Positions 4,977-36,100 of a DNA stretch of 64,000 bases are shown piece after piece. The stretch covers positions 20,306,975 through 20,370,974 of the forward strand of contig OZ018409.1 of assembly GCA_963969595.1 (NCBI GenBank). The letters run 5' to 3'. The position numbers were made by a program, and so were the translations under genes. This DNA is from Neckera pumila (Eukaryota; Streptophyta; Bryopsida; Hypnales; Neckeraceae). The notes under the pieces were generated by a model. It ran no database searches. It worked only from the letters and a program-made list of their open reading frames with translations, and was not told the origin of the DNA. Positions within the stretch are counted from its first letter, which is position 1. Each line of letters starts with the position of its first letter.

Positions 4977-6668
4977 TGTCGTTATTTTTGTTGATGCATT
5001 GGATACTTCAATATTTTGAAGCATTAAGGTAGATCTCCCATTTCCGATCACTTAAGCATTTCAGCATATGTGTGATTGAGCAATGGTGGAGGAAAATTTT
5101 CTCCAGTGAACAAATAGGAATAAGAAAGATTGCCATCTTTTGGTAATTTTTCATCAATTGTAGAATTAGTAAAAATTAAAGAAGTGGAAAAGTCAAGGTT
5201 TCCTATTTCCGATCAATAAGCAAGCCCATTCTTGATCAATGGCAACTTATTAGTTGTCAATGTGTCATTCATTACAGAAGAAACAAATAAGAATCGAATG
5301 GCCTATAAAGCTATGGTTACAAATGGGTCAATCTATTGATCGGAAATGGGAGGGCGATTGGAAAGAGTTTTGATCATGGAAAAGATCACTTTGATGGCTT
5401 GATGGCTTCGATGTATTCATCGAATCCCAAACCTTTCTGCAGTTTCCTTTAGACCAATGCATCATTACAAGGTCAAATTTGTCTATAAAGAGAGAGTTCA
5501 AAGAACTCTTTGGTGTAGAAATTTTGCAAGTTGCAAGAATAAAAAGGGGATTAAGTTACTGGCATGGAGGGGATGGCGAGATTTCGTACTATTCATCTCA
5601 CTCAGTACAGTACCATGTCCTCCAAGAATCTCGAATCTCAGGCCAGGATCAAAGTCCTGTTTTTAGATTGAAACGTTGAAACATGGACTCGTCTTGTCGT
5701 AGATGACAACAGCTCTAAAAATTGATTGGCGCACGACGCCAATCGACAGAATATATTGGAATAAACATTGGAACACACGGCAGTACCTCACGAGCACTTA
5801 GAGATGCATCAAATGTACAGTTCTCTCCATGAACTGTTTGGAATGTCCAATAAATAGTGCAATTTGTTCCAGGCTCTACGTAACAGAATTTTGAAAAACA
5901 GGACCACAGAGTAACAGTAAACTTCTAAAGGAATATACTACTCAATCTTCACTTTGTGAAGGGAGATGGTAAAACTAAAACTCAAAAGTACATATGGTCA
6001 AAGCAGGCCATTTGGGAACTTGATAATGACTTTCCTGAGAATCCTAGCCACCGAAATTTCATGCTGCCAGCCGAGTTGGGGAAGAAAAAACGAAACCTCT
6101 CTCTAAGAGATCGTGGTACCAATAGCCCACAGAGCATTCCACCCAAGGCGCTTTCTAAATGTAGACGGAGGAACAGTCTTCAATGATAAGAGATTATGAT
6201 CGTCGCACAAATGCACATTGGTACAGGAACTTGAGTATTGATTATGGTGGCGATCTATCAGCAGCATTAGGCCCAGATATGTGAAGACGAACTGGTTGAT
6301 GCAGAACCGAAGCAAAAGCAGACTCCAAGGTAACAAAGTGTTCTGGCTGCTGAAACTTTCTTACAAACAGAGAAGATGCACTTACACATACCTCGAGCTC
6401 AGCCAACCTGGAAGAAACTGATACCAAGGATCCCTGCATGGAATAAACACCAGTATCAATATACTGTGAATATTTGCCAAAAGAGTTGGGACTCGGCATA
6501 AAACAATTACTATCTTCTTTTCGAGACTCACAATGTGAAAAGAAGGAAACAGGATAGTAAATGACATTCGAATAGGAATAGTGATCATCCGATGTATTTG
6601 CAAAAAAAGAAGATCGAGACCTAAAACAACTTAAAAGAACAGATTCACAATCCGTTCCACCTATTGAG
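4977..6668. other. Spacer, probably containing the 3' UTR of the exonuclease-MutS gene
   Basis: No gene is supported. A plus-strand frame of 76 codons at 5956-6186 has no recognisable motif. The right part lies immediately downstream of the minus-strand stop at 6669 and probably holds its 3' untranslated region. I could not fix a polyadenylation site. Confidence 0.4.
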
Positions 6669-9600
6669 TTAGTGTTGCACCTTCTGCCTCAGAAGTGCCT
6701 GAGTAGCTGGTTGGTTCTGCAAGGCCATGTAAACTCGCTCCCATACCTCATCCAGCTGCTCTCTTGAGTACCCACTTTCTTCATGTACCTTTGATTGCTC
6801 TGAGGGTTCCAGTTGCGCATACGAACTCACTTCGTTGTCTTCGTTGTCTTTTGAGGGGTCAAATCCGATGTCGTCGAACTCTTTTGATGTCGTTGAGCTC
6901 ATGACAGAACTCACTTCCTCCAAGGAACTCGACTCTTGTCTATTATCAGGAACCACGTTTCTCACAGGAATTTCCGACGCTAGGGGGATTAATAAGTCTC
7001 TATTTACATTTCCCGCCTCAGTACTGAGGTTGGAAAAATTATCCAAGACGTCTCCAAACAAGTACACCAGACTTCTCCAAACCAATATTAGTTCCATTTC
7101 TCCAAGTCCTCCCAGATTCGGGTCAGGACTACCCTTTAGTAAGTCCAGTTCCAAACCGTTATTTGGAGCGTGAGTCTCCACATTGCAATTTGCATTCTCA
7201 GTAACCTCGTCAAGTAAAATCCCGATTTTCGTGTCCTGTACTTCGCTGTTTCCGCAATCCTCATCCGATTCATTCTCCAGGGTACTCGTCTGCAACGCTG
7301 GTATTCCAAATTGCTCCCTAGAATCATTCAGATTTGCACTTGATCCTTCTTCAAGGGCAAGGATTTCAGAAGCTCTGTTACACACCCAATCCGGTAATCC
7401 AGCACCTCTACCAATGGCAATAGCATAAGACCTCACAGCATTGCCTGGCTTCACAGCATGGTCGAACATCACTTCACCGTTCTCCAGTTCAGTTGCCTGG
7501 AAGTGGTAATTCGTAATGTTGGGATAATCTTGATCCAATATGTGAAGGTCATGATAGTGAGTTGAAAAAATGGTCCGAGCACGCACTATCTGGGACAAGT
7601 ACTCGATTATTGCTCGGGCAATAACACCTCCCTCCTGAGAGCTGGTTCCTCTACCAACTTCATCCAAAAGAACTAATGAATGAGCAGTTGCACGGTTGAG
7701 GATGTTAGCAGACTCTAACATCTCAACCCGGAAAGTACTCTGGCCAGCAGCCAAATCATCTACTGCACCAACACGAGTATAAAGCCCGTCTGCTAGTGAT
7801 AACTGGGCAAATTTAGCAGGAACAAAACTGCCAGCCTGAGCTATCAATTGAATGAGGCCTATTTGCCTCAAATAACAACTCTTCCCGCTGGCATTTGGGC
7901 CTGTTAACAAAACAAGATCAGCACGTGGCCACCACTTCTCACTTTCATCCGTTAATTCCTCCACCGTTTTTGCCAAACTCGACTTCTCGTCACGTTCCGT
8001 ACCTCCAGTAACGGAATCCTCCTCCGAGACCGTATCAAACCCTAGGTAAGCAGAGTTTGCTACATAACACAGATCCTCTGATAGCGACAATTCTACCACA
8101 GGATGTCGACCCCCAATTATAGTTATCTCTCGACCTGTTTCCATCATATGCGGACGGCAATAGTCCCTCTTCACAGCCAGATCTGCAACAAATTTAGTTA
8201 TTAGGTTACAGCACGGGAGCGAAGAAGAAGTGCCAAGGTTCGAACATTATATCAATTGAAAGGCACAATCCTGAAGCCCTCTTGACAAATCAGCCAAGCC
8301 TATATCATTAATGAACTCACCCCGAGCTACATCGTACGCTTCCTTTCCTCTGCAGATCTTTTACTACGTGTACATAAACCAAACAAGATAGCAGTATACA
8401 AGAGAATAACTCAAAAGAAGCAGAGAACATAAACCGAGTCAATGCAGAAGAATACAATGTACCTGCAAAGGTGCACAGCACATCAAGAGTAGCCACTGCT
8501 TGACTATATTCTCGAACAGACTCCAACAAGGATACTATCTCTTCCTTCAAGGTTCTCAGAAGCTCTTCCTCACGCTCGTAAACCCTTGCCTCAGCAGCCA
8601 TTCTTCTCGACTCACAATTCAAAAGGAGTGGAGTGACAAACCTCTCCTCGGCTTTCAAGCTCTGAAGTCTCTGATAGTCATCAGGAATGGAACCCTCTTT
8701 AAGCTTGTTCTTCCTGATGCTAATATAGTGGCCATTGTTCTTAGTGTACCCAACCTGCAATTACAAGTTACACATATGCTGATGAAACATTGAGTTTATC
8801 AAAGACAGGAAGACACTGTAGCCCAAATCCCCGTACAGTCAAAATCAAAAGAGTGAAAACCAACTAGAAACTCTGTCGTAAACACCAACATCCGGGAGGA
8901 GAAATCTACGAACATCTACCAGGCCCCTCCAATAGTACGACAATAGACTTACTTAAAGATGTCATAACAATTTGCAGCAGATTCACTCAAACAAATCAAT
9001 GGTAAATCTAACCTCCAACGAAGGAATGCCCAGGCGTAAGCGTTCTTGCTTCTCATACTCTTCAAGCCAAATCATCGTCACCTGCACTTCTTGCCGAAGG
9101 ACATCTAAGGTCGGATCGGCACCTGCTTTCACCACTTTCCCTGCTTGTATACCATTCCCAAGCTCCTCCGTCACCATATTCTACTCATCCAAAAACCAAA
9201 AGGCACTCAATCAATCAAGTCATATAACTGCACATCCAGTACGATATACCCCTTCACGATCCCTTGAAATGAGATCTGCTGGCAAAGTTACTTTCTCTGT
9301 TTCTAACGGTCACCCAGGTTAGATGGAAAATTATTCTTACTTCAACTTTGTTGGCCCATTGCACAGCAGATGCGGGAGTATGAGAGGCAGCCACAAAATA
9401 ATCGTTGGCTGATGCTCCCTCTATAAGCTCAGCCAAGCTCGGCAAACCCTTGATTGATTGGGCCAAAGTCAATAAATCCCTAGAAGAAAGACAAACCAGA
9501 TGTGCTCAACCAGATATGCAAATTCACCCAATACGTTCACTAGACAGAAATAAATCATCACTACTTGTCTACAGTCACTCTACATAATGGGTAAACTTCA

Positions 9601-12600
9601 TCCTGGACGAATCACGAAGATAAATAAGCTCAACTTTCAACGTACAAACTGCCTACAATCAATAGAATCTCCTTCTCAGGTAGTCCAGTCATGAACCGGT
9701 CATGAAAAAACATGTCTACATAAGTTGACATGTTCAATGTTTAATCGACACCAACAATCCTTGGGTTCATGTCAATACCTTGAATCAGCACGCTTCCATG
9801 CAATGCGAGAAGCTAAACGCTCAATGTCTGATATACTCTCCAGTTTGCAGCGGAACTGCGAGCGCAGTACATGATTCTTGACAAACACCTGAAATGAACA
9901 TGAGATGATCAATTTTGATATTATTTCTGGAATGGTTTATATCACCAGAACCACACAAAATATCTAGTAATAAGAACAATTTCTTAGTCTAATCTCATTC
10001 CTAGTCCATCCAACCCACCAATATCCCTAACCCACACTACAACCTCTATACAAGGAACTAATTTCCAATGACGGAGCGGTTTATTACCATAGGAATTAAG
10101 AATCGTGAGAAAATAGAATTAGGAAGGGCAAGTCCCCAGGATCCATGCATTCTGAATAAGAAAATCACCTCAACGGCATCGTGTCTTCTACAAATCAGCT
10201 CATGATTAATGAGAGGCCAGAGCAACCAACGACGAAGTAATCTGCCCCCCATTGCTGTCTGCGTGTGCCCCAAAGCCCACACAAGAGAACCCTCCACCTT
10301 ACCCCAGCGCGATGTCTTCAGCAACTGACATACAAGTGCAAGAGTCCAGAAGCATTATGTCAGCAACGCATTTGCTTATCTAGAGCAACAAATACTGCAT
10401 ACTCTTTCTCCAAACAAGTAGAAACTTGAGCGCTCATTTGCAAAATTACCTCTAAATGGTTTCGTACAGTGTCATCCATATGCATTGTATCTAATGTGGA
10501 ATAACAGCTGGGTTTTTGAAGAGGTATCTCTTCGTTACTCAGCTTCTGTGTTTCCTGAACATATCTGTCAGCACAATGCACATCAGAGGGAATTAATACC
10601 GAATAGGATGATCATACAAAATTCAGTCAGAGGACAAGATAAACAGGGCCAAGCTTCTTAAACCCAAGACAAATGTGACCCATGAGGTGCAACAAGCAGT
10701 ATAATGTAAGAAACGAGCAAGGTCACTGAAGCGAAATGTGAAAAAAAATTAATAAGATTCCTAGGGAACTGCATAGTGCTTCTAAACATGTGTGTGGACC
10801 TGCAAACTAGTGAAGATTCCAAGAAAATACAATCCCACATACAAGAATCTTGACTCCTGGAAATATTTCTGACAAGATGCAAACTTTGATATACTGAACG
10901 TCAAATACTATGAATTGAGAATTAAAAAAAAAACTAATATAAGAAAAGACTCGCATGATGAGATATAATCACCTTGAGTGACATAAGTGAAAGTCTGTAC
11001 GTCAAAATTCGCCCCTATGACACACATCTAATCCAGTTTATGAAGATCCATATGTTATCAAGAGGAAACAGACTGAGCTCGATGAAAATGAAGGATAAGA
11101 AATTAAACGCGACGCTTACCCCAACAGGCCTCCTGCTGCCCGAATAGCATGCGGTGATCGGAGCAGACCAAAGGCCTCCAAGGCCTCCTCCCCAAAACTA
11201 GCGTGTAATCTCTGGAAACCAGCATAGAAAATATAAAAAGTTAGGCAGCTACAGAATCACATAATATAGATATGCACAATGCACATCTAGACTAGCCGCT
11301 TCAGAGTAGGCTCGTATGTGATGTATGCATAACATGCTTGAGGCCACAAAACATATACACACTTCACATCAACTAGAATCCCCGTTCCTCAGCCAAACGA
11401 CAGGTAATATTTCAAGAGGTAGTATGCAAGTCTTTCTTAAAAATGTACTCATGATGCAGCTCAGATATATCGAGCTAACTTGAAGAAATGAGACATGTTC
11501 GCAGCATGACATAATTCATCTCTAAATGAAATTTGGACTAGAAGAGCTCTTACAGTACCTTCTCAGCAGCCGCTGGGAAGAATTCCGAAGTTGGGCGGCT
11601 GGAATAGCACAGTTCACTTGGCATTCCAAATGGTCGTAGTACCTCGGTCTTCTTATTGATAGTGCAGACGACCTGCAATTGAGTAAGATGTTGTCATACA
11701 CAAGCAACCAACTCAGACTCTCAAGTTCACTTAGCCTTGAAACTTCCTCCAAACGTATTGCTGTCATTTATTTTTATTATTAAAACTTTCTATACTTCAA
11801 GACATGAACGCTGATACCATCTAGCACTGCTTAGATTAAATGCATCATCTCTGCAACTACATGCTATCTGGATCGGACGGTAAAATCCAAAGATAGCAAA
11901 AAGAAACATCGACTTCCAGATGCCTCTGCATACTCATGAATTGTTTAATCCTTCAAATGCATCAGGTCGTATCACATAAAGATATGCCTTGCAGAAGGGG
12001 CAACAAGCTTACATTTGCAGGAAAGATGACCTCCGAAGGTTGTAAACGTTGGAGCTCGTGTAGCAAGGAAGATCTACCCTGTCCTTGTGTTGCCTGAAAC
12101 TCTCCTGCCACACCCAACATAGTTAAAGTCTACGACCTGATCAACAAACCAAGACGTATTATGTATGTGACTATGCCTGTGACTATATGTAGTGCGTACG
12201 TGCGTGCAAGTGTGTATAAAAGTTACATCATCACTTAGAATTGAGCGAAGGAAGCCCAGTGGTCACCTAAAACTCAATAAAATTGAAACCGCGTTTCCAA
12301 TTTTCTAAAAGATCATAGGAGCAGTACCTGTTGAAATATCAGAATAAGCAAGACCCCAAATTCCATTTTCATCCGCATGAGGAAAGATAGCAACCAAGAA
12401 ATTGTTGCAAGATTCTTCCAGCATGCCCTCGTCCAAAAGGGTGCCCGGAGTGAGCACAGCAGTGACTTGACGATCGATTATCGTTCCTCCTTTAGAATCT
12501 GCGGTATTGACCTGCAAAATTTGACCCTTGTGCTCTTTAGAAAAATACGTACGTCCAGCTTCTTCGAACTAGACAATAGACTCCAGGCAATAGATGAAAG

Positions 12601-15600
12601 ATGTCTACGAAGAATGCAGCTTGCATTTAAGGATGAAGTGAAAAAATCTGTGTTTTCAAAACCAAGAAAATACAAAGCAATGCATGAGGCAGCAAGGAAA
12701 TTACCTGATCTTGCTTGACAACAGCAATGCCTTTCTTCATCAGAGTGCGAAGGTAAATATCAATTTTATGGTAAGGAACTCCCGCCATGGGCACCTTCCG
12801 TTCCAGCATCTGCCACGAAAGGGCACATGACCAGTTTAGACATAAAATTACTGGTGAGCGGTGGTCACAGCAGCATAAGATCAGCCACAGCATGCAAGGC
12901 TATCACGAAAATTGCAAAAGTTTGCATACAGCTATGAATATGGAATACAAGATGCTTCTCCCAAACATGCTGAATATCAAGCACCACCTTGACTGCCACA
13001 AAAAGCCCTGCACTCTGAGCCATTCGATATTCGATTGTAAATTCCAAAAATTGAGAGCACAAAGACAGTAATGATTCACATAACGATGAGACGATCAACT
13101 TCGTACCTTCCCTCCATCCACGCCCGACAATCGAATGTTACAAGCATGCGCCAAAATTCCTGCATCTTCAAAAAATGCCTGCAGATATAATCCTTCGGTA
13201 AAGACTGAGAAGTGGCATACCTATTGCAGGATTAAAACACGCCAAACCGAATAAGCTCTACTTATATGCAACCCACTGTTAGAAAATTTCGAGTACCTCA
13301 TAAAAATCCCCGACCCTTGAGAGCAGAAGGAATTTCGGTCTTTGCCGTTTTGTCTCCACATACTGTTTCATCATGGGACTCAGAAGAGACAGATTAACAG
13401 AACTCGTAAGCAACTGTTCCGGTGTAACTATCTGCTTCTGTTCCTCAACAGTTTGTAAAGAGCCATTTAATTCCTGGTCTATAGCTGGTTGAACAGGTTG
13501 TATGCTTTGTCTAATATTAACTGTAGCCTCAGCAAAGAATAGGTGCTCCTCAGAGTCAGCCACAGTATGCGCTATATTCCGTGTAGCTGTTGTCTGTACG
13601 TCACCTGTCCCTCGCCTCCTACCTCTCTTTTTACTCATCAATGTACCGCCAATATTCAAAGGCTGAAGCATTCCATCCCCTACAGCTGGGGTCAAAGGCC
13701 TACTCTGCCGAGCTAATTCCGAACCCTCTAGGTCTCCATTTTTCATCAAATCTTCCATGCGACTAACTTCGCTAGGAAGCAGACTACTAAACCTCAGTTC
13801 TTCATCACATTTACTAGGTAACAAGCTAGAGATTGAGGATTCTTCTGAAAGTGATTCTTGCAAGTCATCTAATGTCGACATGTCTCCAGGAACAAGAGGA
13901 CTAGTCATGGCAGAGTCCTTTTCGAGCTGATTAATAATGGAGGGTACCAATGTACTTGTAGCCATACTTTCTTCATTGCCCAGGACTAAACCCAAAGCAT
14001 CTTCAAATTCAAATACTTTATTGTCTTGTGCATTATCCAAAACAAACTTGTCTTCCCAGGAGGACATAGTTGCAGTTTTCGGAGCAGAAGGTTCCCTTGA
14101 CAATTCTAAAAGATCTTCAACAGCAGTGGCGGGGAAGGGCGCTTCAGTGACATTGACTGCCTCTACATCTGATTGGATAACCCCAAGAAGAACATCTTCA
14201 GCCCCGGTAGTCAAGCCCGCATTCGACAAGTCCTCAGAATGACTAGGATGTCCATCTCCTAGTGACTGAGCAGCAGAAGCAGGAAGGGGTATTATTAACC
14301 TCTCATCCTCCTTCAAAACCGGTTGATGAGTTTCCTCCGAACAAGCAGAAGAATTCTTGTTCATAAGGCCTCTGCTGAGAGACACCATGCTTGCAGAAGA
14401 GTCCCAAAGCTCTTCAGTCTCGAAGTATGATGAACTGGCTTTTTCAGCTTCAAAGTCCTGTCCTTGGCCAGATCGCTCTGACAGAGTGTCCAACTTGCTA
14501 TCTAATTGTATATCTACGTTCCGTTCATAAATTCTAAGCTCCGACAGAGATTGCTCTATGAGGGTCTCGTCTAATTCTTTTGATAGAGATGTGTACCTGT
14601 CATTATTTTCTCGTAAGAGAAGGCCTGGTTTCAGCTCTATATCACTCGCTTTAAAAGCTTGATCCAGAAGCTCACAAACAGGCATCTCAAGGTCCATTAA
14701 CAATTTTCCGAACACGCTGGCTAGCATATCCACATCCACACCCGCACGATGAGCATCCTTAAGGCGTGGTAGATTGTAGCAATCATAGTACAGATATTGC
14801 AGATTATATAATTTCGTCTTTCCTGCAGAGAAAGTACGTAAGAATAGGATGGCAACAGAATGATAAGTCCATTGAGCGAAGAAGTGTATACGATATGGTA
14901 AGCAGCCCACATACACAAAAATTGCACGACCGGCATATTTCTACAAACAATCAAACAGACGCAACCATCGAATTTGCTCAAATCTTAATCTTAACGAGCT
15001 ACAATAGGCAAAGCACCAGAGTGAAAGTTCATCGTACCAAATCTCTTCTTCAGCATTATCTTGGCGAGGTCAATAGTGTCCAGGAAATACCAATGAGCAG
15101 GAATTTCCATGGAGCATTCATAGCACTCCTTCATAATAAATGGCACGTCGAATCTTTTCCCGTTGTGAGCAACTAAGATAACTCTCTCGTCTCCCTTTCG
15201 CCGACCCTCAACAAAGTCGACAAACGCAGTCATAACTTCTGTCCAGCTGCCATGCAAAGGTCACTTGACTTGACGGCCTTCATAATTTCTAAAGTATATT
15301 TGTAACCAAATAAGTTCATTGAACGGCATTCAAAAAATCAACCTTGAAAGTAAAACAAAGCAAGGACTACTGCAACAATATTCTAGACGCACTAACAGCA
15401 TCATACCATGTACAAAGAATACCTTGGAATGTCATCCCGATTTACCATTTCAGAGGTAATCTTGTGAACAGCTGTGGATGCCAATGGCACGGGTTGAGAT
15501 GGATTCACCAAAGTCTCCAGTGTACTGCGGTCTCCTCCAGCAAGATCCCGACATGCCAGCTCCACGATCTTACTCCCAGAACTTAGAAACCCTGTTGTTT

Positions 15601-16557
15601 CTATGTCAAACACTATGATTGTTGGATCAGCTTGCGATTCGATTGGTACCTTCTGTTCTCCCTCGTTGAAGGACCCTTCTTTTAACTCTTCAAAACTTAA
15701 GTCAGATACAGAAGCTCTTTCACTAGCACACTCTGCCTCCTCTGATAAACTTCCAGTAGGGGCAATTGTTCCTTCCCAGACAATCTCCTCTGCAAAATCG
15801 GACGTCAAAGCTACTTTCGATGATCCATCTTCTTCAACAGAGGCTTGATCACGTGATGGAGCCACGCATTCTGCCAAAGATCCTGAATTTTGAATCTTCA
15901 CTATGCTTCGTGAGTTTAATTCCCGCACGAGGGAACTACATCCGGCTAAACTAGGCCAACCATGAAAGGAGTATGGCCGCAGATGTTTCATATGTACATT
16001 TCTGGTATCAATAAAATAACGGAAACCTAAACGAGATTTACTTTCCACTTTTCTGTTCACTGCATCGAGGTTTACTCTGCTACTCCTGCCTCCAACTCTG
16101 TGAAACCTGCGCCAAGAGTCATAAAAGAATTAGAAACACAGCATTTCAAAGAATATACATAAAGGCACTAAGGTGATAGAACCTGCCCTAATCTAAGATC
16201 TAAATCGATACAAAGGCTCATTAATTCCATAACTTACCTCAAATGGTGCCTTGACAAGGAATAAAACCCTAAAGAGGGTCGATCACTATATCCCGGACTG
16301 ATGCCGCAAAATCCTAACTTTCTACCAGTTTCCACGCATGGTATAGGTCCTAAACGCTCCAAGACGCAAGGCATTGTAGACAACTTCGTTGTCGGTTTAA
16401 TTCTTCCTGGCGCTCGCAGGGAAGTGTCGAATTCGCCTTTTATCGAGCTTCCATCAACCTTGCCCGAGCGCTTCCCAGCCAGCCCTGTGTGTCTGAAAGC
16501 TGTCATGCTCCCGAAAACAGAAGCCCGTCGATGCAGAACTGGCCATCGTTGGCTCAT
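6669..16557 (-). CDS. Organelle-type MutS fused to an N-terminal DEDDh exonuclease
   Basis: Predicted 1963-aa mismatch-recognition ATPase joined to a 3'-5' exonuclease. Exons: 16557-16238, 16106-15423, 15246-15038, 14822-13297, 13178-13107, 12809-12705, 12511-12328, 12104-12013, 11672-11559, 11211-11120, 10564-10450, 10324-10169, 9888-9779, 9479-9341, 9180-9013, 8754-8463, 8182-6669; total 5892 nt, all phases agree. The ATG follows an in-frame TGA. Residues 1-110 are Arg/Ser-rich, like a transit peptide. Exonuclease, about 268-440: FDIETTG (D274, E276), HNGKRFD (D368), HRAGVD (H429, D434). Residues 450-885 are an acidic, Ser-rich linker. MutS, about 890-1740: GDFYE (F911, E913), connector, lever and clamp, GPNASGKS 1554-1561, LLDEVGRGTSS (D1633, E1634), STHYHD (H1668). 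The 220-residue tail is acidic and has no GIY-YIG domain, unlike plant MSH1. The MutS part resembles cyanobacterial MutS1, so plastid ancestry is inferred. Targeting is predicted only. Confidence 0.9.
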
Positions 16558-26248: not shown

Positions 26249-26307
26249 AATTGTCTCTCCCGTTGCCATTTCCATTTCAGGCGCATTGATCAATCGCATT
26301 TTCGATT

Positions 26308-27306
26308 ATGGACATGATGGACATGGCCTCGCCGCCGGAGACTACAGGTAGCAGCAGCGGTGCCCCTTCGTCCCTGGTGCTAGTCACTCGGCCGGCTGCT
26401 TTCGGGCTTCCCACGGCATGTCCGGTATGTCTGCCCGCGTTTCTGTATCTGCGCTTGGCTGCGGTTTCATTTGAGGTGCATGTGACTGCCGTGCAGCCAG
26501 ATAGCGAGGATCTCCCCTCGTTGGAGTACGGGGAGAATGTGGGATTCGCCAGTGAGAATGGCGGAGTAGTGGAGTTTCTGCGGAAGGAGCATGTAGTGGA
26601 TTTGGATGTGGAGTTGTCCGACAGCGAGAAAGCGGAGCTGGAGGCTTGTAAGGCGATGATGGAGTCCTGGGTGGCGCACGCTAGTGCGTATGAGGTTTGG
26701 CTGCGGGATAACGATCGGCAGTGTAAGGCCGTCTATTTCTCGGAGCTTCCGTGGCTTCTTGTTCAGGCGTTGGATTGGAAGCAGCGTCTCGCGGTGATGC
26801 AACGGTTGGGAGTTACTCCGGAGAATGCCGACTCGAGGGCGGAGGAGCTCTACAGGAAGGCCAGTCAGGCGTACTCGGCGCTCTCGGTGCTTCTTGGTGA
26901 CCAGAAGTTTTTTTTCCATAATCGACCGTCGAGCCTTGATGCGCTCGTGCTTGGTCACCTCCTGTTCCACTTGAAGGTGCCATTCGAGATTTCGACTTTG
27001 AAGGGAGAGATTCTTAAGTACCAGAATTTGGTGGATTATGCGGAACATTGGTCGAAGCAGCTGCTTGGAGAAGAAGAGGATGCTGCCTTTCGTCCGAAGG
27101 CACCACCACCTCCCCCTGCGAAGCCAGTGCCGAAAGAGAGAGAGAAACCGGCGAAGAAGCCTCGGAACGAGAAGGATATTACATTCAAGAAGCGGGCGAA
27201 GTATTTTGTGATTGTGCAGTTCGTGGCGGTGTTGGTATATGTTTTGCTTGCGGGCATTGAAGTTGATGATGGTGATGAAGACAACGCCGGGGAGGATGAT
27301 GAATGA
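26308..27306 (+). CDS. MTX: Metaxin-like mitochondrial outer-membrane protein
   Basis: A single uninterrupted 332-aa frame. Plant metaxin works with the sorting and assembly machinery (SAM50) that inserts beta-barrel proteins into the mitochondrial outer membrane. The N-terminal half has the GST-like fold expected of the family, with the PTACPVCLPAFLYLRLA segment (about residues 33-50). The C-terminal GST-like half includes FFFHNRPSSLDALVLGHLLF (about 200-220), the signature of the metaxin/Tom37 group. Next come a proline-rich stretch and a basic stretch (about 253-290, PPPPPAKPVPKEREKPAKKP), a single hydrophobic segment YFVIVQFVAVLVYVLLAGI (about 297-315) that would anchor it, and an acidic tail. 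Length suits plant metaxins. The first ATG is used; ATGs at codons 3, 4 and 6 are alternatives. The gene is GC-rich compared with its flanks. Confidence 0.88.
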   Translation: MDMMDMASPPETTGSSSGAPSSLVLVTRPAAFGLPTACPVCLPAFLYLRLAAVSFEVHVTAVQPDSEDLPSLEYGENVGFASENGGVVEFLRKEHVVDLDVELSDSEKAELEACKAMMESWVAHASAYEVWLRDNDRQCKAVYFSELPWLLVQALDWKQRLAVMQRLGVTPENADSRAEELYRKASQAYSALSVLLGDQKFFFHNRPSSLDALVLGHLLFHLKVPFEISTLKGEILKYQNLVDYAEHWSKQLLGEEEDAAFRPKAPPPPPAKPVPKEREKPAKKPRNEKDITFKKRAKYFVIVQFVAVLVYVLLAGIEVDDGDEDNAGEDDE

Positions 27307-31686: not shown

Positions 31687-33101
31687 GGGCTTTGATCATC
31701 CAATGTCCAAATTTAGATTCTTCTTGTATTTTTCTTATATAGAGTTTTTAAGAAATTCCATAATACTCTCAAATTTCAATTTTACACAAATATACTCCCT
31801 CAAATCCACTAAAAACCTCCAAATCAAGCAAAATTCTTGTCCCACTAAAATGCTCCGTTTCCTAATTTTGATTGTTGAATAAGTTTTGGCCAGGTTGGAC
31901 AACCTTGTGGGGGCAAGTCAAGCGATTAAGGAGCATTCTTCTCCTAGGTTGCTCGGCCTTGCCCATATGAAGCACCTTGTACTTGTTGTGCTCCTGAGAC
32001 AATAGTATTGACAATGTATTTGGTGATCACTTAGGCGCTATGAAAATTTGTTCATGAAGTGGTTTAGGTTTCTTTGTTGCGGGTATTTAGATTGGGGCAC
32101 ATATTTCTAGTTTTCATTGTTGCCACCAACCTTTAATGAATCAAAAATGATGGAGCTAGCAGCATTTATAACTTATGCTCAAAAATGGTACTTTCTGCAT
32201 GGCTTTTAGGTGCCTAGATGATGACGCCTAAGCTAGAGATTTTGCATAGATCTAGAGGATGGGTTATTAGTTTTTGAATGCCTATATCACTAGCAAAAAG
32301 ACTAAAATTGTAGTTAATCCCTCATTGAGAAGCTTTTTGGAGGTTATTAGTGGGATGGAGGGAGTAACAAATTCTTTTCAAGGATAGGAGTGGAGATGCT
32401 CCAATATCAAAATCTTACCATAGGATAGTTTGTATTCCATAATAATTTTAAAAATAGATGCCAAACTTTTTCGAAAAATTATTTTTGAAAAAAAAGAAAT
32501 GTATGAAAAAAAAATTGTATTAAAAGAAAATTGTATGAAAAAAAAAATGAATCGTGATGAACAGATCTCCTTTATTATCCAGAAAAAATTAAATATAAGT
32601 GCCCATCCTGCCCGTCACTTACGGTATCTGGATCTGCTGAAAGGGGATGATGGCTTTGCGCGCGGGTGACCTGGGAGCCACTGACCCGTCCCGTCCAACG
32701 CCCGCTGCGATGGACTTGGCCATGCTCCAAGTGCATTCTTTGGCCCACCAAGCCTCGGAGATGATTTGCGAGAATTCGCACAGACGAAGCGGATATGGCC
32801 ATGACAACGCCGATGCTGTTGCAAGGCTATCGAAATCACTCAGACTAATCCCCCGCCCTTGCTCTTTCCAATTTCGTCCCACTTCCTTCCAAATCCTGCC
32901 TCCCAACAAACAGACGCCCTCACTGAATCCGACCTCAGTTCTTGCAACTCCCCATCCGCTGCAATTTGCAACTGCAACGAAGCAGCTATCTTTACCTTCA
33001 GGGTTTTGAACTTATGTGAGATTGTGAGATTTTGTGATCTTTCTTTGGAGGTTTGGAAGCTCGAGACCTTGAAATTTTCGAGCTCGTGAGTGGCGAGCAA
33101 G
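31687..33101. other. Spacer and probable FtsZ promoter/5' UTR
   Basis: AT-rich to about 32590, then a sharp rise in GC to the FtsZ start. A 120-codon plus frame (32647-33009) lies in this GC-rich leader. It shows no domain and is more likely 5' UTR. No TATA box is clear, though an AAATATAAG tract occurs near 32590. Confidence 0.4.
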
Positions 33102-36100
33102 ATGGGTTCGATGGCTAGGTTGAGTCCTGGCCCGTTGGGCTCGACATTGGGCTCGACATTGGGCTCCACGCGGGGATCGACATCACCACAGTGCTGCTAT
33201 CTCAGAAGCTCGGTCGCGGCGAGGCAATGTGGGTGCGTGATTGTGGAGAGTGGGAAGCAGCTACGGTACAAGGGGCAGTTCATGGGCAATGCGAAAGGGG
33301 TCTTCAATGGCGCCCCGCGTTGGGGCTTGAGGATGCAAAATAGTAGGCGGAGTAACAGTGTGGTGGTGGCCATGAGTAGCGCTAAAATCAAGGTCATTGG
33401 GGTGGGCGGCGGGGGTAACAATGCCGTCAACCGCATGATTGGGAGTGGTATTCAGGTATGCCGTTTTCGTCCCCTTCTCAGTAATTTGCTTGAAGTTTCA
33501 ACCGAAGCCGTGAAGTCAAACATTCAGACAGGAAAAATAGAGCAAGGATTCTGGTTCATTCATGGATGGCATCATCGCTTTCAAAAGATCTCTCTGAATG
33601 GCGAATGTAGCACCTTCCCTGTCGAAACGTCTCGTCAAGGTTGAATATGAGGGCAATCTCGTACGTGAGAATCTGTGTAAATTTCTAAGGTGGTTGTCTG
33701 GTGCAATTCTTTTCTCCCCACTCCAAGATATCGTACCGGGCAGAAGGAGGATCCAAAATGTGGGGTAGGGTTTAGTAATACTGATTATCGACACAAATCA
33801 TTTTAGAGTTGATGGTTCTGTCACTGAATCAACAGTGAATCGATGGTTTTGCTGCATTAGGCATTTATCAAGGTGTTGATATGACTTAATGTTCCAGAGA
33901 CGGTAATTTAGAGGACGTACCGTGCAGACCCGGCGTTCTATAGGGTATCGAACGCAACGAAGTCCTTTCGAAGTATGGAGGACTTCGACTTTTCTCTGAA
34001 TATGGAGGACATAATGCCAAGTTGTCCTGCTAAATCAAGAATGTCTCTGTATGTATTTTCTAAGTCGATCAAAGGATTCATATTGAGACGTTAGAGCAGT
34101 ACTACCCTCTTCTGACTCACCTATGAGAGAGCAACATAGTTACCTTGAAACTAGAATCGACATTAACTATTATCATTACTACAGTTACATGAAATCAACC
34201 CATACGGATCCCTTTTGCTGAAATTTAATCTGACTCTAAGCAGGGTGGCCTGCTCGACCTTACAACCATTCCGATTTTAACACAAACCCTACTCTGAGGG
34301 TTTCTGTTTTATGAGGGTCCCTGAAGCCATTGATAGGGTCTTCATCAGCAGGGTCTTCATGCTGGGTTTCCTCCTCAGGTTCCTCTGCAGTACAATCTAG
34401 CCCCCAATATCTTTAACGTCACTGACTGACTTTAGGTGACCTGTATTAAGTATGATGACTTGAAGATTGTTCTCTACAGTAATGAAATGTCTATTTAGGG
34501 TGGCAGTGCTCAGTACTATTGCCATGATGCATTTGATGGGCTTTGAGTATCCATTTGCTTGAACATGACTTGGATTGTAGAGAACTCAACTCTGTCCTGC
34601 AGGGTGTGGATTTTTGGGCTATCAACACGGATGTCCAAGCTTTGCGGAAATCCCAAGCGGAGCATCGCGTTCAAATTGGGGAAGCATTGACCCGAGGACT
34701 TGGGACGGGTGGAAAACCTTACCTGGGAGAGCAGGCAGCCGAGGAGTCGATTGAGATCATTGCAGAGGCCGTGGTGGACGCTGATCTCGTCTTCATCACT
34801 GCAGGAATGGGAGGTGGGACAGGTTCCGGTGCTGCCCCGGTTGTAGCCCGCGTGGCCAAAGAGGCTGGACAACTCACTGTGGGCGTCGTCACCTATCCAT
34901 TTACGTTTGAAGGGCGACGCAGAAGCCAGCAGGTAATGTAAAGTCTCCATTCACCATACAGTAAGGGAGTGGTTCCATTCACCACACAGGTGAACCTTGA
35001 ACCTTTCCTTACGACAATCTAGAAACTTGCACCATCTAAACTATGCACATTTATTTTGTGATAACCTAAAAAATCAATTGCAAAAAGAAATGTCAATAAT
35101 TAAGTATTTTAAAAGTTGGCACAAATTAAGTTCCCCTGTTTGGTCAATGGAGCCTCTACCTAATGTGTTTACATTGTGTTGGTTTTAGAGCTCATGAAAG
35201 AAAGATCGTTGAAGGTTGTGATACTTTTGAGAACCATGAGTCTGCACTTTACCCTGTCCACTGACTCATTGCACATATGTTCATAACTTGGATTTTGTCC
35301 AAGCACATGGATACACAATATGACAGATTCTGAGGATATACAAGGAATTTGCATATGTGTGTGTATATCTGTGTGTCATTAGAGAGATTTGAGTGTCTTT
35401 TATCTCTGTCGCACTGGGAACCAGAAGTGAGCCCTGATGATGGGTGGATTGTGATGCAGGCAGTGGAGGCCATAGAGAACCTGCGGAAGTCTGTGGATAG
35501 TCTCATTGTCATCCCCAATGACCGTTTACTTGATGTATCTGAAGAGAAAACGCTTCTCCAGGATGCCTTTTCTCTTGCAGATGATGTTCTTCGGCAGGGA
35601 GTGCAAGGCATTTCAGACATCATCACTGTACGTGTTCAACTTTGTGATAGTCTGGATGATGTCATACTCTGCTGTCTTTCCTAACTGCACAATCCATGAA
35701 TCTACTCAGTCAGTTTCATGAGGACCAGAAGACTATGAAACTGTCACTTATCTGTTGCACTGGTTTTTCGTCGCATACATTATTTGGCATATACGTAGTA
35801 TTTCATGATTCTTTTGTATCATTGGCAACAAAAAGATCAAAAATTCTGAGATCCTGTGCTTGGTGGGGCAGACACCAGGTCTGGTGAATGTCGATTTTGC
35901 AGATGTAAGAGCTGTGATGAGCAACTCCGGAACAGCTATGCTTGGTGTTGGTTCATCAAGTGGCAAGAATCGTGCTGAGGAAGCTGCCACTCAAGCTGCC
36001 TCGGCTCCCCTTATTGAACGCTCCATAGAACAAGCAACTGGCATTGTGTACAATATAACAGGCGGCTCAGATCTCACATTGCAGGAAGTGAACACTGTGT

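What the first reader, a model, noticed from the sequence alone, without database searches (positions are those of the whole stretch)
6669..16557. Exonuclease-MutS fusion: one protein predicted to sense mismatches and digest DNA
The reconstructed 17-exon frame (5892 nt, all phases consistent) places a complete DEDDh exonuclease (D274, E276, D368, H429, D434) ahead of a complete MutS (F911/E913 mismatch motif, Walker A 1554-1561, Walker B 1633-1634). In bacteria, mismatch repair recruits separate MutL/MutH and exonucleases; plant MSH1 instead carries a C-terminal GIY-YIG nuclease, absent here. A MutS carrying its own 3'-5' exonuclease could run a self-contained organelle repair or proofreading pathway without MutL. 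I do not recall a described eukaryotic family with this layout, but cannot exclude one.
Basis: partly seen in the sequence, partly recalled or inferred. Interest (0 to 1): 0.93.

Follow-up and report, generated by a model that had tools for sequence, protein, structure and literature searches.

The report
Moss exonuclease-MutS fusion with replication-type tail
This moss gene encodes one large protein that joins a DNA-chewing enzyme to a DNA-mismatch sensor, a fusion already described in mosses and other plants, and its overlooked last exon adds a small domain related to bacterial replication-machine proteins that may tell where the protein docks.

Summary
The fusion is real. Exon 4 alone (14822-13297) runs from DPD1 catalytic residues H429/D434 to the MutS mismatch motif F911/E913, so no splicing is needed to join the halves. 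RNase_T and MutS I-V pass their Pfam cut-offs, and the Physcomitrium patens homologue is 68% identical over the whole query. It is not new: Sloan et al. 2024 (PMC12292046) describe this family as DPD1-MutS1, with the same five catalytic residues at numbers shifted by two, and already suggest that the fused nuclease relates to loss of plastid-type MutL.

Its stop (6669) lies in an intron and an 18th exon (6433-6242) was missed; the corrected CDS is 6072 nt, 2023 aa. Exons 17/18 encode a conserved C-terminal domain matching Pfam PF23007 (STICHEL DnaA_N-like) and a DnaX gamma/tau model, found in 5 of 5 full-length members compared and 0 of 20 other MutS-type proteins in the list. Sloan's main text has no mention of DnaX or STICHEL. 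That domain is the part worth following. Its partner is unknown and no function of the protein has been shown.

The parts
6242..16557 (-). DPD1-MutS1 gene, corrected 18-exon coding region, 6072 nt, 2023 aa
   Evidence: all 17 introns GT-AG
14710..15616 (-). DPD1-type DEDDh exonuclease domain, aa 271-442, over exons 2 (16106-15423), 3 (15246-15038) and 4
   Evidence: PF00929 1.2e-18; coordinates
13297..14822 (-). Exon 4, one open exon holding H429, D434, the linker and F911/E913
13378..14709 (-). Acid-rich linker, aa 443-886
   Evidence: composition of aa 471-878; poorly conserved
7359..13377 (-). MutS domains I-V, aa 887-1734, over exons 4-17
   Evidence: PF01624, PF05188, PF05192, PF05190, PF00488; coordinates
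6681..6773 (-). First part of the C-terminal DnaX/STICHEL-type domain (aa 1930-1960, end of exon 17)
   Evidence: PF23007; coordinates
6434..6680 (-).
6275..6433 (-). Second part of the C-terminal domain (aa 1961-2013) in exon 18, which was missed; exon 18 runs to the stop at 6242
16238..16557 (-). Exon 1, N-terminal extension, possible transit peptide (not tested)
   Evidence: first 60 aa 20% K+R, 5% D+E

Best explanation
It is the moss counterpart of plant DPD1-MutS1: an N-terminal extension with a possible transit peptide, a DPD1-type 3'-5' DEDDh exonuclease, a long acid-rich linker, a MutS1 with domains I-V, and a C-terminal DnaA_N-like domain of the kind found in bacterial DnaX (gamma/tau) and plant STICHEL. 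Most likely mechanism, all inferred: in plastids and/or mitochondria the MutS part binds a mismatch or loop as a dimer; ATP binding turns it into a sliding clamp; the flexible linker lets DPD1 degrade the nicked or broken strand from a 3' end, doing the work that MutL plus separate exonucleases do in bacteria; the C-terminal domain docks the enzyme on an organelle DNA-metabolism partner. Shown here: gene structure, domain content, conserved catalytic residues, conservation of the fusion and of the C-terminal domain. Not shown: localisation, any activity, any partner.
For: Pfam domains above cut-off; P. patens homologue 68% identical over 100% of the query, and Marchantia and Riccia homologues with the same precomputed exonuclease and MutS domains; five exonuclease residues, F911/E913 and four Walker A residues identical in 5 of 5 aligned proteins; fusion inside one exon; only two MutL-type exon hits in this genome, which read like nuclear PMS1/PMS2 and MLH1 (names from recall; a lower bound); Sloan et al. 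2024 describe the family, its predicted organelle targeting in many members and the lack of cyanobacterial-type MutL in Viridiplantae.
Against: Sloan et al. know of no study of the function of these MutS1 proteins. No targeting predictor was available. DPD1 is not expected to act without an end (Sloan et al.), so an endonuclease must act first and none is identified. One of the five aligned proteins (P0004) has a changed Walker B (DE to DG) and signature loop yet keeps the exonuclease residues and the C-terminal domain, so ATP-driven mismatch repair may not be the conserved role in every lineage. Sloan et al. also report ferns and Zygnema with one or both FXE residues lost. Cyanobacterial affinity of the MutS part was not tested here (no title among the 80 loci is cyanobacterial).
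Confidence: 0.55

Rival explanations
1. Recombination surveillance: the MutS part senses heteroduplex or D-loops between imperfect repeats and DPD1 trims the invading 3' end, so the protein rejects ectopic recombination rather than correcting replication errors.
For: Sloan et al. 2024 offer it as the second possibility (passage). A 3'-5' exonuclease suits an invading 3' end. P0004, with a changed Walker B, keeps the exonuclease residues and the C-terminal domain.
Against: The complete MutS domain I with F911/E913 (5 of 5) points to mismatch recognition, though heteroduplex rejection could use it too. No recombination phenotype has been measured.
Confidence: 0.33
2. Programmed organelle DNA degradation, as for standalone DPD1 of seed plants, with MutS serving only as a DNA-binding handle.
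For: Sloan et al. call the exonuclease part orthologous to DPD1, which degrades organelle DNA in Arabidopsis pollen and ageing leaves; the catalytic residues are conserved.
Against: A bare handle would not need domain I with FXE and an intact ATPase, which 4 of 5 aligned proteins keep.
Confidence: 0.08
3. Two adjacent genes merged by a wrong gene model.
For: No transcript data are at hand.
Against: Exon 4 is one open exon across both halves; the same fusion is in 4 of 4 full-length homologues.
Confidence: 0.02

Closest known systems
DPD1-MutS1 of Physcomitrium patens and other Viridiplantae (Sloan et al. 2024, PMC12292046)
   Same: Same order, DPD1 exonuclease then MutS I-V; five catalytic residues at numbers shifted by exactly two (276/278/370/431/436 against 274/276/368/429/434); FXE motif; 68% identity to the P. 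patens protein over the full query.
   Different: Nothing essential. The C-terminal PF23007 domain is in the P. patens protein too but that paper's main text has 0 occurrences of STICHEL, DnaX, DnaA and tau (its supplement and figures were not seen).
Arabidopsis DPD1 (standalone exonuclease)
   Same: DEDDh 3'-5' exonuclease type; orthology of the plant fusion domain is stated by Sloan et al..
   Different: Standalone in seed plants (PMC12079397, passage), no MutS.
Plant MSH1
   Same: MutS fused to a nuclease domain, acting in organelles (Sloan et al.).
   Different: C-terminal GIY-YIG endonuclease and separate origin (Sloan et al.); no GIY-YIG match here.
C-terminal domain of DnaX gamma/tau and of STICHEL (PF23007)
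   Same: About 85 aa: a STICHEL profile gives 25.4-33.0 bits and a cyanobacterial-type DnaX profile 15.0-27.3 bits on 5 of 5 members; the best of 1000 shuffled decoys give 6.6 and 9.0 bits.
   Different: No clamp-loader ATPase part. The protein ends soon after the domain, without the long tail with an A(E/D/N)FFNGE-type motif seen in all eight DnaX proteins compared. Mean identity about 23% to either group.

Membership tests
DPD1-MutS1 | N-terminal RNase_T/DEDDh domain | tested here: met
   PF00929 1.2e-18 at aa 271-442
DPD1-MutS1 | Five catalytic residues D, E, D, H, D | tested here: met
   identical in 5 of 5
DPD1-MutS1 | MutS domains I-V with FXE motif | tested here: met
DPD1-MutS1 | Both halves in one reading frame | tested here: met
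   exon 4; transcript not tested
DPD1-MutS1 | Close kinship to a described member | tested here: met
   P. patens, 68% identity, 100% of query; no tree built
DPD1-MutS1 | MutS part of cyanobacterial type | tested here: inconclusive
DPD1-MutS1 | Plastid or mitochondrial targeting | not testable with these tools
   only the composition of the N-terminus was computed
Plant MSH1 | C-terminal GIY-YIG domain | tested here: not met
   no PF01541 among the families at E <= 0.01, nor in the C-terminus at E <= 10
STICHEL/DnaX C-terminal domain (PF23007) | Score over the curated cut-off of 27 bits | tested here: met
   36.7, 32.6, 31.6, 29.1, 28.0 bits, 5 of 5 C-terminal pieces
STICHEL/DnaX C-terminal domain (PF23007) | Kinship to bacterial DnaX | tested here: met
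   (PRK14948, 1.3e-07 and 3.1e-06). Against: PF23007 rang in 0 of 14 control genomes, Synechococcus elongatus among them
STICHEL/DnaX C-terminal domain (PF23007) | DnaA domain I-like fold | tested here: inconclusive
DnaX/STICHEL protein | Clamp-loader ATPase | tested here: not met
   no such family at E <= 0.01

The most novel reading that the evidence does not exclude
DPD1-MutS1 is a three-module repair enzyme: a proofreading-type exonuclease, a mismatch sensor and a DnaX(tau)/STICHEL-type adaptor. The C-terminal domain recruits it to an organelle DNA-synthesis or helicase complex, so that mismatch sensing and strand removal are physically coupled to replication without MutL or a sliding clamp.
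Probability: 0.25. Interest if true: 0.72.

Novelty: new member of a known kind. Interest (0 to 1): 0.4.

Why it matters
The gene is another intact moss copy of a protein family whose function Sloan et al. say no study has tested. The corrected 3' end shows that the members compared carry a conserved domain related to DnaX/STICHEL C-termini. If this domain binds a partner, it is a direct handle for finding what the enzyme works with, and it turns the open question of how Viridiplantae organelles might repair mismatches without plastid-type MutL into a pull-down and knockout experiment in Physcomitrium.

Tried and rejected
Two separate genes: rejected, exon 4 spans both halves. Stop at 6669 as the true end: rejected on the homologues and the in-phase exon 18. 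Exon 7 acceptor at 12568: rejected on the homologues.

Origin of the C-terminal domain: undecided. The family is equally distant from STICHEL (mean identity 23.0%) and from cyanobacterial-type DnaX (22.6%); no tree was built. The exon 17/18 intron (QALLRQK|GSLVS) lies about 12 residues upstream of the intron that I infer by eye in three moss STICHEL-like genes, so it gives no sign of a simple exon transfer from STICHEL. Before the profile test five partial STICHEL-type pieces (P0088, P0156, P0095, P0102, P0113) were dropped, and the DnaX pieces of P0127 and P0190 were cut anew around one motif; groups used were 5 family members, 14 STICHEL and 8 DnaX. Only one of the eight DnaX rows (P0189) is named Cyanobacteriota by its source; the others are called cyanobacterial-type from likeness. 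One search listed the best 120 of 2221 hits.

Results against the reading: PF23007 rang in 0 of 14 control genomes, Synechococcus elongatus among them, and the own-genome search with it listed four exon hits (three STICHEL-like loci) but not the window's own split domain. The DnaX profile scores most STICHEL domains low (-1.3 to 12.2 bits). The C-terminal domain matched nothing relevant among solved structures by sequence (one row, E 1.2), and no DnaX/tau chain is among the listed structure rows, which shows nothing either way.

Searches that led nowhere: the C-terminal alignment against prokaryote contigs, 97 pattern matches and no relative. A region search with the C-terminus found only two moss-like fragments among 266 candidates. 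The MutS search of prokaryote contigs returned no locus titled cyanobacterial. RNase_T in the own genome gave three hits that by recall read like oligoribonuclease, ERI1-like and SDN nucleases; it did not list the window's own split domain, so absence of a standalone DPD1 is not shown. The protein query meant to settle that did not complete.

Literature on the C-terminal domain: and word searches in Sloan et al., showed no paper linking plant MutS to DnaX or STICHEL. Listings were partial: 20 of 48 papers, 12 of 118, 10 of 417, 10 of 33. Subscription papers, preprints and the Sloan supplement were not searched.

Full report
What is there. The region is a nuclear-type, intron-rich gene on the minus strand of a 339.5-Mb genome in 18 contigs. 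Its closest named relative is from the moss Physcomitrium patens, so I take the genome to be a moss; it is not named in the data. The N-terminal half has an RNase_T domain at aa 271-442; the C-terminal half has MutS I (887-1000), II (1009-1143), III (1167-1459), IV (1326-1417, inside III) and V (1551-1734), all above Pfam's cut-offs. A sequence search against solved structures puts the exonuclease with PolC, exodeoxyribonuclease, TREX1 and DnaQ-type enzymes.

The fusion test. Exon 4 (14822-13297, 1526 nt) is one open exon encoding aa 405-913. It holds the catalytic residues H429 and D434 and the mismatch motif F911/E913. Such an open stretch is expected by chance at about 2.6e-11. Four homologues have the same order: P. 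patens (P0001, 68% identity over 100% of the query), Marchantia polymorpha (P0002, 56% over 44%), Riccia sorocarpa (P0003, 48% over 55%) and an unnamed one (P0004, 46% over 44%) (best local alignments). The five exonuclease residues, F911/E913 and the four Walker A residues checked are identical in 5 of 5. Only a transcript would be final proof.

The missed exon. The matching sequence lies at 6433-6242, preceded by an AG acceptor and in phase with a GT donor after 6681. The corrected gene is 18 exons, 16557..6242, 6072 nt, 2023 aa, and all 17 introns are GT-AG. Two further moss-like ORFs leave the conserved sequence at the same point, after a V-x-H shared with the window's intron start.

The C-terminal domain. 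The last ~100 residues match PF23007, 'STICHEL, DnaA_N-like alpha-beta domain', in 5 of 5 members, 28.0 to 36.7 bits against a cut-off of 27. In NCBIfam the window's domain matches PRK14948, DNA polymerase III gamma/tau, at 1.3e-07 and the Riccia one at 3.1e-06, both far below that model's whole-protein cut-off, as expected for one domain. I then obtained STICHEL and DnaX proteins by searching with a STICHEL-like gene of the same genome (best 120 of 2221 listed). Seven of the eight DnaX-type proteins taken from that list carry PF23007 in the precomputed column. A profile of 14 STICHEL domains scores the five members at 25.4-33.0 bits; a profile of eight cyanobacterial-type DnaX domains scores them at 15.0-27.3 bits; the best of 1000 shuffled decoys score 6.6 and 9.0. 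The domain is in 5 of 5 full-length members compared (window and P0001-P0004) and in 0 of the other 20 MutS-type proteins in the result list (P0005-P0024) at an independent E of 0.1 or better with any of three profiles. Against this, PF23007 rang in none of 14 control genomes, Synechococcus elongatus among them.

What the C-terminal domain may mean. In E. coli tau, domain V, and within it residues from 611 on, binds the polymerase III alpha subunit (PMC11470591, passages). The eight DnaX proteins compared carry a long tail after the domain, each with an A(E/D/N)FFNGE-type motif near its end. DPD1-MutS1 ends soon after the domain, so polymerase III binding cannot be carried over, and plant organelles use other polymerases (recall). 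I infer only that it is a docking domain with an unknown partner. Whether it came from STICHEL or from a cyanobacterial DnaX could not be decided.

How it most likely works. MutS1 finds a mismatch or heteroduplex, DPD1 on its acid-rich linker (18% D+E, 8% K+R over aa 471-878) removes DNA from a 3' end, and the C-terminal domain places the enzyme. Each step is inference from domain families. Recombination surveillance is a serious rival. P0004, with a changed Walker B (DE to DG) and signature loop but intact exonuclease residues and C-terminal domain, suggests that the ATPase cycle is not essential to whatever keeps the protein in that lineage.

What is known. Hofstatter and Lahr 2021 (PMC7884376, passages) report a MutS of cyanobacterial origin in some photosynthetic eukaryotes and apparent loss of chloroplast-type MutL in green algae. 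Sloan et al. 2024 (PMC12292046, abstract and passages) describe the DPD1 fusion in Viridiplantae, list the P. patens residues 276/278/370/431/436, note that only red algae among the lineages with this MutS1 keep a cyanobacterial-like MutL, propose that DPD1 does the chewing back or acts on invading strands, and know of no functional study. A 2025 review repeats that the function remains to be explored (PMC12079397, passage). In this genome two MutL-type exon hits were found, reading like nuclear PMS1/PMS2 and MLH1 (names from recall); the search is exon by exon and a lower bound.

Verdict. A genuine, well-conserved member of a family published in 2024. The new points are the corrected 3' end and the recognition of a DnaX/STICHEL-type C-terminal domain, which I did not find in the papers that I could search.

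Noticed in passing
window 14007-13978 (aa 677-686): Inside the otherwise poorly conserved linker a short motif, FEDALGLVLG here and FEKSLGLSLG in liverworts, is kept in 4 of 5 aligned proteins (not P0004); possibly a binding motif.
   Followed up: no
window 7091-7041 (aa 1824-1840): A hydrophobic stretch, LILVWRSLVYLFGDVLD, in the C-tail has a counterpart in the moss-like fragments P0071 and P0072 but falls largely in a gap of the P. patens protein.
   Followed up: no
P0004 (unnamed source, 1761 aa): A DPD1-MutS1 homologue with Walker B changed from DE to DG and a changed signature loop, but intact exonuclease residues and C-terminal domain: possibly a member whose MutS ATPase is dead.
   Followed up: partly
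G000:C6:23682839-23683505 and 23770374-23771029 (L005, L006): Two MutS-type loci about 87.5 kb apart with near-identical match scores, looking like a recent duplication of another MutS gene.
   Followed up: no
P0029 and P0052 (PolC-type by their Pfam list), N-termini: The STICHEL C-terminal profile weakly matches the N-terminus of PolC-type proteins (independent E 0.006 and 0.0036), hinting that a related small domain occurs there.
   Followed up: no
P0011 (1496 aa, named Elusimicrobiota MutS by its source): One bacterial protein whose precomputed Pfam list holds both MutS I-V and MutL-type domains (PF01119, PF08676), an apparent MutS-MutL fusion.
   Followed up: no
window 33090-33644 +: Frame with [21 protein letters not shown], which looks like part of a plastid FtsZ gene (Tubulin/FtsZ 0.0044, below the cut-off).
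   Followed up: partly
window 26305-27306 +: Metaxin/Tom37-like mitochondrial outer membrane protein: GST_N_4 5.4e-18, GST_C_6 2.7e-17, Tom37 2.2e-08.
   Followed up: partly
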